Below are positions 24,761 through 62,608 of a stretch of DNA of 64,000 nt, piece after piece. The notes under the pieces were generated by a model. It saw nothing but the letters and a program-made list of their open reading frames with translations. It made no database searches and was not told the origin of the DNA. Each line of letters begins with the position of its first letter. Position 1 is the stretch's first letter. Source of the stretch: Conexibacter woesei Iso977N (GTDB lineage Bacteria > Actinomycetota > Thermoleophilia > Solirubrobacterales > Solirubrobacteraceae); the NCBI RefSeq assembly GCF_000424625.1, contig NZ_AUKG01000003.1, forward strand, positions 1 to 64,000, read 5' to 3'. The position numbers were made by a program, and so were the translations under genes.

Positions 24761-26653
24761 ATGCCTCATCTGCGCTCCCGGACGGTCACGCACGGTCGCA
24801 ACATGGCGGGCGCTCGCTCGCTGCTTCGCGCGGCGGGCGTAGCGAGGGACGCGATCGGCAAGCAGCCGATCGTCGCGGTGGCGAACTCGTACACGCAGTT
24901 CGTCCCGGGACACACGCACCTGTCGCCGGTGGGGCGCGTCGTCGCCGAGGCCGTCGAGGCCGCGGGCGGCATCGCGCGCGAGTTCAACACGATCGCCGTC
25001 GACGACGGGATCGCGATGGGGCACGACGGCATGTTGTACTCGTTGCCGTCGCGCGACCTGATCGCCGATTCCGTCGAGTACATGGTCAACGCGCACTGCG
25101 CGGACGCGCTGGTGTGCATCTCCAACTGCGACAAGATCACGCCGGGGATGCTGAACGCCGCGCTGCGGCTGAACATCCCGACGGTGTTCGTGAGCGGTGG
25201 CCCGATGGAGGGCGGTCAGACGGTCCTGGTCGACGGCACGGTCCGCAAGGGCCTGAACCTGATCACGGCGATCGCGGATGCGGTGAGCGACAGCGTTTCC
25301 GATGACGACTTGGCTCGGATCGAGGAGGCGGCGTGCCCGACGTGCGGGTCGTGCTCCGGGATGTTCACCGCGAACTCGATGAACTGCCTGACCGAGGCGA
25401 TGGGGCTGGCGCTGCCGGGCAACGGCTCGACGCTGGCGACGCACACGGCACGGCGCGATCTGTACGAGGCCGCCGGCCGGACGGCCGTGGAGCTGTGCGC
25501 GCGCTACTACGACGGCGACGACGAGAGCGTGCTGCCGCGCGCGGTCGCGACGCGGGACGCGTTCGAGAACGCGATGACCTTGGATGTCGCGATGGGCGGC
25601 TCGACCAACACGGTGCTGCACCTGCTGGCCGCCGCGCAGGAGGCGGGCGTCGACTTCACGATGAGCGACATCGACGCGATCTCGCGCAGGGTGCCGTGCC
25701 TCTGCAAGGTGGCGCCGAACGGGACGTACCTGATGGAGGACGTCCACCGGGCCGGCGGGATCCCGGCGATCCTCGGCGAGCTGTGGCGTGGTGGGCTGCT
25801 GCACGAGGACGTCCACACCGTGCATGCGGGGTCGCTGTCGTCGTGGCTGGAGGAGTGGGACATCCGCGGCCCGAAGCCGAGCGAGCGTGCGGTCGAGCTG
25901 TTCCACGCCGCGCCGGGGTGCGTGCGGAGCGCCGAGGCGTTCTCGCAGTCCGAGCGCTGGGAGTCGCTGGATGCCGATGCCGCCGACGGCTGCATCCACG
26001 ACGTCGAGCACGCGTACTCGAAGGACGGCGGGCTGGCGATCCTGCACGGCAACATCGCTCTGGACGGCTGCGTGGTCAAGACCGCGGGCGTCGACGAGTC
26101 GATCTGGGAGTTCAGTGGGCCGGCCGTCGTGGTCGAGTCCCAGGAGGCCGCGGTCGACGCGATCCTTAACCAGCGCGTGAAGCCGGGCGACGTGGTCGTC
26201 ATCCGCTACGAGGGTCCGCGTGGTGGGCCGGGGATGCAGGAGATGCTCTACCCGACGAGCTACCTGAGGGGCTTGGGGCTCGGCGCGCAGTGCGCGCTGA
26301 TCACCGACGGGCGGTTCAGCGGCGGGACCTCCGGCCTGTCGATCGGCCACATCTCGCCCGAAGCAGCGAGCGGCGGCGCGATCGCCCTGATCGAAGACGG
26401 CGACACCATCAACATCAACATCCCCCAGCGCTCGATCGACGTGGCCCTCACCGACGCCGAGCTCGAAGACCGCCGCTCCCGCCTGGAGTCCGGCAACGGC
26501 TACAAGCCCCTCGAAGACCGCCCCCGCGCGGTGTCACCCGCACTGCGCGCCTACGCCGCCATGGCAACGTCAGCCGACAAGGGCGCCATCCGCGACGTGT
26601 CGAGGATCGAAGCCCTGCAGGACGCCGCAACCCGCTCCGTCGAGCCCGCCTAA
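24761..26653 (+). CDS. ilvD: Dihydroxy-acid dehydratase
   Basis: A 630-residue iron-sulfur dehydratase that forms 2-oxo acids from 2,3-dihydroxy-3-methyl acids in valine, isoleucine and leucine synthesis. Cluster ligands are visible: [11 protein letters not shown] (Cys near 127) and [19 protein letters not shown] (Cys near 200). [24 protein letters not shown] is the C-terminal substrate-binding signature (core GRFSGGT). The length is that of the E. coli-type long form. ATG 24761 is preferred over an upstream in-frame extension that runs through the divergent gene. No other ilv gene is adjacent. Confidence 0.95.
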
Positions 26654-26660
26654 CTCGGCA

Positions 26661-26687
26661 CGCCGCGGCGCTTCACGCGCCGCGGCG
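26661..26687 (+). terminator. ilvD terminator hairpin
   Basis: CGCCGCGGCG (26661-26670) and the identical self-complementary CGCCGCGGCG (26678-26687) form a 10-bp stem with a 7-nt loop, 8 nt after the ilvD stop. The 137-bp repeat begins 4 bp further on. Confidence 0.75.
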
Positions 26688-26690
26688 ACC

Positions 26691-26964
26691 GCCGTCCTCG
26701 CTACACGCGGTCACCTACGCCGTCGGTTCTGCAGGCGGTCGTGTCCGCGGCCGCACTCCCGCCCGCGCCGACGCTTGGAGTACCGGCGCGTTGTCGGTCG
26801 TAACTCCGCGACCGTTTGGCGGTCTCCGCCGTCCTCGGTACACGCGGTCGTCGGCGCCGCTGGTTCTGCGGGCGGTCGTGTCCGCGGCCGCACTCCCGCC
26901 CGCGCCGACGCTTGGAGTACCGGCGCGTTGTCGGTCGTAACTCCGCGACCGTTTGGCGGTCTCC
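26691..26964. repeat. Two tandem copies of a 137-bp intergenic repeat
   Basis: Unit 1 covers 26691-26827 and unit 2 covers 26828-26964. Aligned by eye they differ at about 8 positions, all in the first 43 bp; the last 94 bp are identical. Shared blocks are TACACGCGGTC, GGTCGTGTCCGCGG, CGCTTGGAGTACCG and a terminal GGTCTCC. The same blocks in the same order and nearly the same spacing recur at 62411-62546. Frames across the units are open but Arg/Pro-rich and I do not call a gene. It fills most of the 322-bp gap between ilvD and the next gene. Confidence 0.85.
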
Positions 26965-26975
26965 GCCGGCGCTGG

Positions 26976-27269
26976 CTAGCGGCTGGTGAGCTCTTGGTCG
27001 CTGGGTTCGTGGCCGAGCTGTGCTCGGAGGCGTTCGCGGTGCTCGGTGTGGCGGCGGAGCAAGGGGAACAGCCAGGTGCGGATGGCTGCGAGCAGTGCCG
27101 TGTTGAAGGCGATGTAGAGCAGGAGGCCGCGTGGCCCGAGGCGCGTCGGCCAGCGCAGCCGGTACGCGAGGCGCGGGAAGGCCGCGACGCCGACGAACCG
27201 CCAGCCCGCCTCGCGCAGAGCCAGGTCCACGATCACGCGCAGCGAGCGGTCGGGCCGCGCCGGCGCCAC
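26976..27269 (-). CDS. Small membrane-associated hypothetical protein, 97 aa
   Basis: A 97-residue protein with one clear hydrophobic segment (GLLLYIAFNTALLAAIRTWL, about 54-73) between a basic N-terminal half (WRFVGVAAFPRLAYRLRWP) and a charged C-terminal tail (RRHTEHRERLRAQLGHEPSDQELTSR, partial). No family recognised. GTG 27269 is the likely start, 8 bp after the stop of the upstream small membrane gene, which suggests an operon. Confidence 0.65.
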   Translation of the reverse strand: MAPARPDRSLRVIVDLALREAGWRFVGVAAFPRLAYRLRWPTRLGPRGLLLYIAFNTALLAAIRTWLFPLLRRHTEHRERLRAQLGHEPSDQELTSR

Positions 27270-60955: not shown

Positions 60956-62371
60956 GTGATGACTGCCCTACGACGCCTTCCCGCCCTCGCCCTCCTCGCC
61001 GCCCTGCTGGCCGCCGTGTTCGCGCATGCTCCCGCCGCGCACGCCAGCACCTCGCAGGAGGTCACCTTCGAGGCCCCGCGCGACCTCTTCGACCCGGCCC
61101 AGCGCGAGTCCGCGTTCGGCGAGATCGACGCGCTCGGCGCGCACGCGCTGCGGATCGTCCTGTACTGGAAGGACGTCGCCCCCGACGCCGACTCGCGCGT
61201 CAAGCCGAAGGCCGACATGACCGACCCGTCGGTCTACGACTGGTCGCGCTACCAGCCGGTGCTCGACGAGGCCAAGGCGCGCGGCTGGACCGTGCAGGTC
61301 ACGGCGTCCGGGCCCGTCCCTCGCTGGGCGACCAACGGCGCGCTCGACAACGTGACGCGGCCGTCGCCGAACGAGTTCCGCATGTTCATGACCGCGTTGT
61401 CGAAGCACTTCGGCAGCGAGGTCACGCGCTGGTCGATCTGGAACGAGCCCAACCACCCGGACTTCCTGCAGCCGCAGTACGACTCGCGCAAGCGGCCGGC
61501 GTCGCCGAAGATCTACCGCGGGCTCTACGCCGCCGCGCTGCGCGGCCTGGCGGCCGCGGGCGACACCAGGCCGGTCCTGATGGGCGAGACCGCGCCGACC
61601 GGCACCGGCAAGGACGTGGCGCCGCTGACGTTCCTGCGCGGCGCGCTGTGCCTGAGCGACTCCTACAAGAAGGTCGGGAGGTGCGACAGGCTGCGCGTCG
61701 ACGGCTACGCGCACCACGCCTACACCAACAAGGCGGGCCCGCTGTACGTCTCGCCCGGTCCCAACAACGTGATGATCGGGACGCTGTCGCGGCTGACGAG
61801 CGCGCTCGACAAGGCCGCGAAGGCCGGCGTCGTCAAGAAGGGCCTCGGGATCTACCTGACCGAGTTCGGCATCCAGTCGGTCCCGGACCCGATCGTCGGC
61901 GTGTCGCTGGCCAAGCAGTCCGACTACCGCTCCTTCGCCGAGCGCACGGCCTACTACAACCCGCGCGTGAAGTCGTTCTCCCAGTACCTGCTCCGCGACG
62001 ACCTCCCGAGGGAGGGTCCCAAGGAGCAGAAGTACTCCGGCTTCGAGTCCGGCCTGCGCGACGCCGACGGCAAGGCGAAGCCCTCGCTGGACTCCTTCCG
62101 CCTGCCCCTGGCCGCCAAGTTCACCGGCAGCTCCACGAAGGTCCAGCTCTGGGGCCTGGCACGCCCGGCCAAGGGCGTCACGAAGGTGACGATCCAGCAG
62201 GCCTCCAACGGCACCTCGTTCACGACCCTGCGCACCGTGACCACGAACTCCCACGGCTACTGGACCTCCTCCGCCACCCGCGGCACCTCCAAGCGCGCCT
62301 GGCGCGTGAAGTGGACCGATCCCTCGGGCAAGACCTGGACCGGCCCCGCAACCCACGCGATGGGCAAGTAG
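60956..62371 (+). CDS. Secreted glycoside-hydrolase-like (TIM barrel) protein
   Basis: A 471-residue exported protein. Signal peptide (TALRRLPALALLAALLAAVFAHAP, core), then a (beta/alpha)8 fold of the clan GH-A type: HALRIVLYWKDVAPDAD, WTVQVTASGPVPRWAT, VTRWSIWNEPNHPDFL (acid/base Glu of WNEPN), and IYLTEFGIQSVPD (nucleophile Glu of TEFG). A C-terminal beta domain of about 95 residues (VQLWGLARPAKGVTKVTIQQ, WRVKWTDPSG) may bind sugar. It probably cleaves extracellular polysaccharide; substrate unknown. The start could be GTG 60956 or ATG 60959. Followed by a strong terminator and repeat elements. Confidence 0.85.
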   Translation: MMTALRRLPALALLAALLAAVFAHAPAAHASTSQEVTFEAPRDLFDPAQRESAFGEIDALGAHALRIVLYWKDVAPDADSRVKPKADMTDPSVYDWSRYQPVLDEAKARGWTVQVTASGPVPRWATNGALDNVTRPSPNEFRMFMTALSKHFGSEVTRWSIWNEPNHPDFLQPQYDSRKRPASPKIYRGLYAAALRGLAAAGDTRPVLMGETAPTGTGKDVAPLTFLRGALCLSDSYKKVGRCDRLRVDGYAHHAYTNKAGPLYVSPGPNNVMIGTLSRLTSALDKAAKAGVVKKGLGIYLTEFGIQSVPDPIVGVSLAKQSDYRSFAERTAYYNPRVKSFSQYLLRDDLPREGPKEQKYSGFESGLRDADGKAKPSLDSFRLPLAAKFTGSSTKVQLWGLARPAKGVTKVTIQQASNGTSFTTLRTVTTNSHGYWTSSATRGTSKRAWRVKWTDPSGKTWTGPATHAMGK

Positions 62372-62408: not shown

Positions 62409-62410
62409 TT

Positions 62411-62608
62411 CTCGGTACACGCGGTCTCGGAAACGCTGCGGTGGCGCGGCCGGTCGTGTCCGCGGCCTCACCCGCGGTGCCGCGGGCGCTTGGAGTACCG
62501 ATGCGTGAATCGAGCCCGCGCTTCGGAGCGGTTGCCGGTCTCCGCCGGCGCCGCTTCTCGGCACGCGCGGTGTCGCTCGCCGGGTTCCGCCGGTTGCGGG
62601 TCTCCGCC
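62411..62608. repeat. Diverged copy plus partial copy of the 137-bp repeat
   Basis: CTCGGTACACGCGGTC (62411), GGTCGTGTCCGCGGCC (62452), CGCTTGGAGTACCG (62487) and GGTCTCCGCC (62537) repeat the blocks of the 26.7-kb element in order, with spacings of 41, 35 and 50 bp against 40, 35 and 49 there. A shorter copy follows (CTCGGCACGCGCGGTG at 62557, GGTCTCCGCC at 62599) that lacks the middle blocks. Sequence between the blocks differs. The element fills the 262-bp gap between two genes. Confidence 0.75.

What the first reader, a model, noticed from the sequence alone, without database searches (positions are those of the whole stretch)
26691..26964. Tandem 137-bp intergenic repeat behind ilvD
Two adjacent 137-bp units, identical over the last 94 bp, fill the gap right after the ilvD terminator. 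The identical part argues for recent duplication or gene conversion. No CRISPR, IS or REP type that I know fits: the units are long, contiguous, without spacers. Each contains CGGTAC/GTACCG-like inverted sequences about 70-80 bp apart, so a folded RNA or a MITE-like element is possible.
Basis: seen in the sequence. Interest (0 to 1): 0.6.

Follow-up and report, generated by a model that had tools for sequence, protein, structure and literature searches.

The report
Repeat arrays pointing away from oriC
The paired 137-bp repeat behind ilvD belongs to a family of about sixty short repeat arrays that sit mostly at the ends of genes in this actinobacterium and point the way the DNA-copying machinery moves, which suggests a direction-reading or replication-coupled element that I did not find described.

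Summary
In detail: window 26691-26964 holds two contiguous 137-bp units, identical over their last 94 bp, between ilvD and a convergent ORF. The unit is not unique. A sequence profile finds 93 matches in 61 arrays of 1-4 units in the own genome and 20 matches in one congener; 149 other relatives, searched with stricter filters, gave no convincing copies.

Orientation in the own genome is uniform within each chromosome arm. 90 of 93 matches are on contigs placed by dnaA or synteny, and all 90 point away from oriC. In the congener 19 of 20 do; the exception is the weakest hit. 52 of 54 arrays overlap no called gene, 30 lie between convergent genes, and most start shortly after a leading-strand gene.

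I found no Rfam match, no covariation, and no terminal inverted repeat of 12 bp or more. The unit is a loose dimer with four conserved boxes among variable spacers. No compared units from different arrays exceed 83% identity, so recent hopping is not evident.

Best reading: binding sites for a protein that reads chromosome-arm polarity (0.42). Main rival: an old non-autonomous element inserted strand-specifically at replication forks (0.30).

The parts
26661..26687 (+).
   Evidence: sequence
26696..26832 (+). unit 1 of the array (boxes A 26697-26710, B 26741-26752, C 26780-26791, D 26821-26830)
   Evidence: (E 4.1e-22)
26833..26969 (+). unit 2 of the array (boxes A 26834-26847, B 26878-26889, C 26917-26928, D 26958-26967)
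   Evidence: (E 5.2e-22)
62410..62548 (+). a second array of the same family in the window: one full unit after a co-directional gene ending at 62371
   Evidence: (E 1.3e-18)
62557..62608 (+). half-unit (box A variant plus box D) directly after the unit at 62410-62548
   Evidence: sequence; by eye
24803..26653 (+). ilvD, the gene upstream of the array
   Evidence: relatives
26976..27269 (-). short convergent ORF downstream of the array (weak coding score, 21)

Best explanation
The 137-bp unit belongs to a lineage-specific family of directional DNA elements. Shown: 61 arrays of 1-4 units in this genome and about 18 in one congener, nearly all intergenic, enriched in convergent gene junctions, and oriented from oriC toward the terminus wherever the contig could be placed. 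Also shown: four conserved boxes (A CTCGGTACACGCG, B GTGTCCGCGG, C GTACCGATGCGT, D GGTCTCCGC, as in subfamily I) in two related half-units with variable spacers. Inferred: the boxes are double-stranded binding sites for a protein whose bound array has a direction, for example a DNA translocase, a replication-fork factor or a condensin/nucleoid factor. Wrong-way copies would be selected against, so the arrays mark arm polarity much as KOPS do for FtsK. Convergent gaps would be used because an insert there harms no promoter. Tandem units would come from local duplication and raise occupancy.
For: Polarity (tallied): C1 left of dnaA 5 '-', right of dnaA 20 '+', C2 44 '+', C3 12 '+', C4 9 '-', C5 3 '-'; no exception among 93. 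dnaA lies at C1:557293, between copies at 470823 (-) and 654517 (+). C2, C3 and C4 were placed on G001's arms by one syntenic anchor each; C5 was not placed. GC skew of the array loci has the expected sign in all six G000 groups. G001: 19 of 20. Outside the set used for model building, 25 further arrays were examined: 24 in G000, uniform with their contig, and one in G001 that fits its arm. Orientation follows replication rather than the gene: given the polarity, in the 30 convergent gaps and the 13 the array points from the leading-strand to the lagging-strand gene, and arrays between two lagging-strand genes (5 and 5) keep the same polarity. Constraint: in subfamily I, columns invariant in half of the 14 arrays mismatch 7.0% in the other half, against 34% for the other columns; 33 of 144 columns are at least 95% conserved, against 4% expected under uniform decay. 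At two junctions shared with G001, boxes C and D are largely kept while spacers differ (by eye). No recent copying among the arrays compared: maximum inter-array identity 0.81 and 0.83.
Against: No binding protein is known, and none was looked for. The family was found in only 2 of the 7 genomes of the genus (three of the other five are fragmented); a core chromosome function would be expected more widely. Only 2 of 17 G001 arrays share a gene junction with G000, so sites turn over quickly. A unit of 137 bp is long for a polarity signal. By eye the arrays spread along the arms rather than crowding toward the terminus. Of 13 box words counted outside the arrays, most show no strand skew (GTCTCCGC 23:8 and GGTCTCCG 30:14 are the exceptions; 21 of the 23 are in coding sequence). 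In G001 the GC skew of array loci is uninformative: -0.004 on the left arm, and -0.021 in the single right-arm locus examined, the wrong sign. One G001 match breaks the polarity.
Confidence: 0.42

Rival explanations
1. Old non-autonomous mobile element. Copies were inserted by an enzyme acting in trans on one strand of single-stranded DNA at the replication fork, as IS200/IS605 or group II intron machinery does. Polarity is then the record of strand-specific insertion, and the boxes are recognition sites of that enzyme.
For: Polarity, presence in only two of the genomes searched, junction turnover (2 of 17 shared) and a convergent junction of about 5 bp in G001 where G000 has four units. Three subfamilies, by eye. 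IS608 and ISDra2 insert into the lagging-strand template (PMC6006769, abstract and passages).
Against: No compared pair of arrays exceeds 83% identity, while boxes are far better conserved than other columns. No conserved terminal helix, and mean fold z of -0.7 to -0.9 on both strands. The single Y1 transposase gene found in G000 and in G001 has no copy of the repeat within about 1.5 kb, and G003, G005 and G006 have Y1 genes but no repeat matches. Other transposase families and reverse transcriptases were not searched.
Confidence: 0.3
2. 3' end element acting in RNA: a transcription terminator (for example Rho-dependent, the sense strand being pyrimidine-rich) or an mRNA-stability element for the upstream gene.
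For: 47 of 54 arrays follow a gene of the same orientation, the first unit starting a median of 23 bp after its stop codon; 20 of 25 further arrays, median 49 bp. The sense strand of the 57 model units is C 0.40, G 0.32, T 0.18, A 0.10.
Against: A gene-end function should also follow lagging-strand genes in the opposite orientation; none of 93 matches in G000 has that orientation. No covariation and weak folding.
Confidence: 0.12
3. Neutral minisatellite: a decayed repeat that expands and contracts by slippage, with no function.
For: Units within an array are more alike (mean 78%) than units of different arrays (58%), and the nearest relative is in the same array for 34 of 49 units.
Against: Single-unit arrays (17 of 37 in G000 and 15 of 17 in G001) are polarised like the others, dispersal to 61 sites is unexplained, and the boxes are conserved.
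Confidence: 0.08

Closest known systems
BRE, Beta-proteobacterial repeat element (PMC3110155; section 14 read in full)
   Same: Short GC-rich repeat (about 90 bp), scattered mostly in intergenic regions, 1-8 head-to-tail copies with no or few bases between, loci differing between related species, function unknown
   [quoted passage not shown] here 93 of 93 matches are uniform within their arm. Sequences were not compared.
KOPS, FtsK-orienting polar sequences (PMC2680272; abstract and passages)
   Same: Orientation from origin to terminus in each arm
   Different: KOPS are 8-bp words; this unit is about 137 bp with four boxes, tandem, and about one array per 93 kb
REP/BIME/REPIN elements (PMC6006769; passages)
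   Same: Multi-copy elements, isolated or in clusters
   Different: BIME/REPIN pair two REP copies in inverted orientation and REPs are tied to a TnpA-REP gene; this unit is a direct tandem and is not linked to the Y1 gene found
MIRU of mycobacteria (recalled; named in PMC3110155)
   Same: Tandem intergenic units in an actinobacterium (recalled)
   Different: Shorter (recalled); polarity to replication not known to me; no sequence comparison made
IS200/IS605 single-strand transposons (PMC6006769; abstract and passages)
   Different: They encode a transposase and have subterminal secondary structures; no conserved helix is seen here

Membership tests
MITE | terminal inverted repeats | tested here: not met
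   no inverted pair of 12 bp or more at the unit or array ends (shorter ones not tested)
MITE | target-site duplication | tested here: inconclusive
   one clear empty junction (L270 against L124) shows no obvious duplication, by eye
REP/BIME | short palindrome, paired inverted copies | tested here: not met
   direct tandem, not palindromic
REP/BIME | linked TnpA-REP (Y1) gene | tested here: not met
   one Y1 gene each in G000 and G001, no copy of the repeat or of the palindrome in L376 and L377 (about 1.5 kb on each side)
Known RNA family (Rfam 15) | covariance-model match | tested here: not met
   Searches (whole window, gathering score; five loci, E up to 5): none on the units
CRISPR | unique spacers between short repeats | tested here: not met
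   contiguous units, no spacers
KOPS-like polar sequences | orientation from ori to ter | tested here: met
   90 of 90 placed matches in G000 (3 more on unplaced C5, uniform), 19 of 20 in G001
KOPS-like polar sequences | recognition by FtsK or another directional protein | not testable with these tools
   needs binding and translocation assays
BRE | BRE sequence | not tested
   sequence not fetched
IS200/IS605-derived element | subterminal secondary structures at the ends | tested here: not met
   no conserved helix, weak folding

The most novel reading that the evidence does not exclude
A chromosome-wide set of long, tandem, directional DNA addresses, placed in the seams between convergent genes and read by a dedicated protein that distinguishes ori-to-ter from ter-to-ori. 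It would be a polarity system different in size and architecture from KOPS, Chi or Ter, and restricted to a few species of one genus.
Probability: 0.35. Interest if true: 0.85.

Novelty: new variant of a known kind. Interest (0 to 1): 0.66.

Why it matters
Interspersed tandem repeats are common in bacteria, but uniform polarity to replication across 61 arrays is not a property of the closest published element I found (BRE), as its authors describe it. If the arrays are read, they would reveal a new way in which a cell tells the two directions of its chromosome apart. If they are insertions, they would be a clean fossil record of strand-specific insertion at forks. Either outcome can be tested with ordinary genetics. 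The placement at convergent junctions also raises the question whether they act where leading-strand and lagging-strand transcription meet.

Tried and rejected
Structured RNA: Rfam, RNAalifold on 26 units (7 pairs, covariation term -0.03), all-pair covariation on 73 units (I read the top pairs as subfamily signal, since they do not stack into helices), fold z-scores of 40 of 58 near-full units (-0.73 and -0.75 with RNA parameters, -0.87 and -0.82 with DNA parameters). The window's own second unit scored -0.87 on the + strand and -1.90 on the - strand. Rejected as the main explanation.

Coding repeat: the units of 133-137 bp are mostly not multiples of three and differ by single-base indels. 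Open frames do run through the array, but the codon-usage caller places no gene there. 52 of 54 arrays and 24 of 25 further ones overlap no called gene by more than 40 bp; the exceptions are L097, L099 and L368. Rejected.

Box words as short KOPS-like words on their own. Not followed further.

Transcription orientation as the cause of polarity: rejected, because the polarity also holds in convergent gaps and between lagging-strand genes.

Other lineages: (R2, 151 genomes, stricter filters above 40 genomes) lists 13 genomes at E <= 1e-3; apart from G000 and G001 each has one or two matches. The best outlier, G070, lies in a called coding sequence. G075's hit was not confirmed by nhmmer. The other nine were not inspected. 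A 400-kb sample of congener G006 has none. Exact two-box patterns found nothing in genome contigs (records of the own genome may be left out) or viral contigs.

Rows dropped: L063 and L267 (judged false positives). Loci L096, L134, L135 and L136 were fetched for weak hits, gave no unit by nhmmer, and are not in the array counts. The G001 match at 5682720 is counted as an exception and was not fetched.

Literature: nine searches (two searches returned nothing). I judged from titles and the starts of abstracts, and opened three papers in part. I saw no repeat polarised like this. That covers only the held open-access papers and these terms.

Full report
What is there. The window (G000:C3:1-64000) carries two contiguous 137-bp units between ilvD and a short convergent ORF, identical over the last 94 bp. 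A second array of the same family, one unit plus a half-unit, lies at 62410-62608. The GC hairpin at 26661-26687 lies between ilvD and the first unit.

How many. DNA search of the own genome gave 22 matches at E <= 1e-3. Iterated nhmmer on the fetched loci gave 73 units in 44 loci, and with further G001 loci 85 units in 54 arrays. A sequence-only profile, R2, built from 57 units, gave 93 matches at E <= 0.01 in G000 and 20 in the congener G001. The 93 fall into 61 arrays when matches within 600 bp are joined. R2 on 151 relatives, with stricter filters, gave more than two matches only in G000 and G001.

Anatomy. By eye there are three related subfamilies of about 133-137 bp that share box A at the 5' end, a box C of the ACCGATGCGT type and a box D of the TCTCCGC type at the 3' end. 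A profile self-alignment shows that the second half of the unit resembles the first (score 16.6 against a maximum of 13.8 in 200 permutations), so the unit is a loose dimer A-B/C-D. Units of one array are more alike (mean 78%, 39 pairs) than units of different arrays (58%, 2397 pairs, maximum 81%). That points to local duplication and to no recent exchange between the arrays compared; the 25 arrays found later were not in this comparison.

Polarity. dnaA lies at C1:557293 in G000 and at 1.1 kb in G001. In G000 all 5 matches left of dnaA on C1 are '-' and all 20 right of it are '+'; C2 (44) and C3 (12) are all '+', C4 (9) and C5 (3) all '-'. One anchor each places C2:577 kb on G001's right arm at 1.70 Mb in the same direction, ilvD of C3 at 0.70 Mb and C4:316 kb on the left arm at 3.49 Mb. 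If the contigs are collinear, these signs all mean 'away from oriC'. C5 was not placed; the skew of its one locus has the expected sign. GC skew of the array loci has the expected sign in all six G000 groups, but in G001 it is near zero on the left arm (-0.004) and of the wrong sign in the single right-arm locus examined (-0.021). In G001, 11 matches on the right arm are '+', 8 on the left arm '-', and one weak match at 5.683 Mb (E 0.005, the weakest G001 row) is '+' against the rule. The G001 terminus was not located; it is assumed opposite dnaA, between the last '+' (2.40 Mb) and the first '-' (3.30 Mb). The search reads both strands, and weak hits in other genomes are of mixed strand.

Gene context. 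Genes were called with a codon-usage script of mine, not with a standard gene finder. Of 54 arrays (37 G000, 17 G001), 47 follow a gene of the same orientation; 30 lie between convergent genes, 17 between co-directional leading-strand genes, 5 between lagging-strand genes and 2 between divergent genes. Two of the 54 overlap a called gene by more than 40 bp (L097, L099). Other gaps in the same loci are convergent in 42 of 342. Convergent gaps are generally tiny here (median 6 bp, n = 69, arrays included, in a 400-kb sample of C2). For the 47, the first unit begins a median of 23 bp after the stop codon (range -5 to 184). The 25 arrays outside this set repeat the picture: 20 with the upstream gene in the same orientation (median 49 bp), 13 convergent, 6 co-directional, 5 lagging-strand pairs, none divergent, one with no downstream gene called, one overlapping a gene. 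An array in a convergent gap could point either way and always points with the fork, so the direction is set by replication rather than by the gene.

History. At the junction of the four-unit array of C4, G001 has about 5 bp between the two stop codons. ilvD's 3' side in G001 has no copy. Two of 17 G001 arrays sit at the same gene junction as G000 arrays (L130/L102, L265/L123) and a third nearby (L266/L101). So the family probably predates the split of the two species, but most sites differ.

Constraint. In 14 subfamily I arrays, columns invariant in one half mismatch 7.0% in the held-out half, the rest 34%. If boxes decayed as freely as spacers after insertion, two copies of one master should be about 87% identical; no pair compared reaches that. 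This argues for constraint after insertion. It is not proof: many different active masters could give a similar picture.

Function. The weights I give are: directional protein-binding arrays 0.42, old strand-specific insertions 0.30, RNA-level gene-end element 0.12, neutral minisatellite 0.08. Shown: copy number, polarity, placement, anatomy, one empty junction, lack of detectable RNA structure. Inferred: any protein, any selective reason for polarity, any mechanism of spread.

Comparison. The closest described element I found is BRE of Bordetella and relatives (PMC3110155, section 14 read): tandem, intergenic, GC-rich, site turnover, but stated not to be co-orientated with the fork. KOPS share the ori-to-ter orientation (PMC2680272, abstract and passages) but are 8-bp words. 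IS608 and ISDra2 act on the lagging-strand template (PMC6006769, abstract and passages), a precedent for the rival reading; they carry a transposase and subterminal structures, which were not seen in the units. MIRU are recalled, not compared.

Limits. The own genome is a 9-contig draft. Search filters miss weak copies, so 61 is probably a lower bound. Gene calls and array borders are approximate. Genes flanking the arrays were not annotated.

Noticed in passing
L124:3522-3568, L100:4005-4051, L110:4329-4375 and others: A second repeat, a near-perfect palindrome of about 47 bp (GTCAACGGTGCATTTTGGTTC..GAACCCAAATGCACCGTTGAC), gives 31 pattern hits at about 22 places in G000; about 10 of the places lie within about 400 bp of an array, all on the array's 3' side (places counted by hand).
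   Followed up: partly
L276:15111-15427 (congener G006): An intergenic tandem repeat of 104 bp, three copies, in a congener where the present family was not found; could be an unrelated family with a similar habit.
   Followed up: no
L007, about 1477-1525, and window 62557-62608: Partial or half-units (box A plus box D) beside full units, suggesting gain or loss of half-units; read by eye.
   Followed up: partly
G000:C2:303556-303885: A single Y1_Tnp gene; G001 has one at 1466926, roughly where synteny would put it. No array or palindrome within about 1.5 kb.
   Followed up: partly
window 26976-27269: The short convergent ORF next to the ilvD array has only a weak coding score; not checked in relatives.
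   Followed up: no
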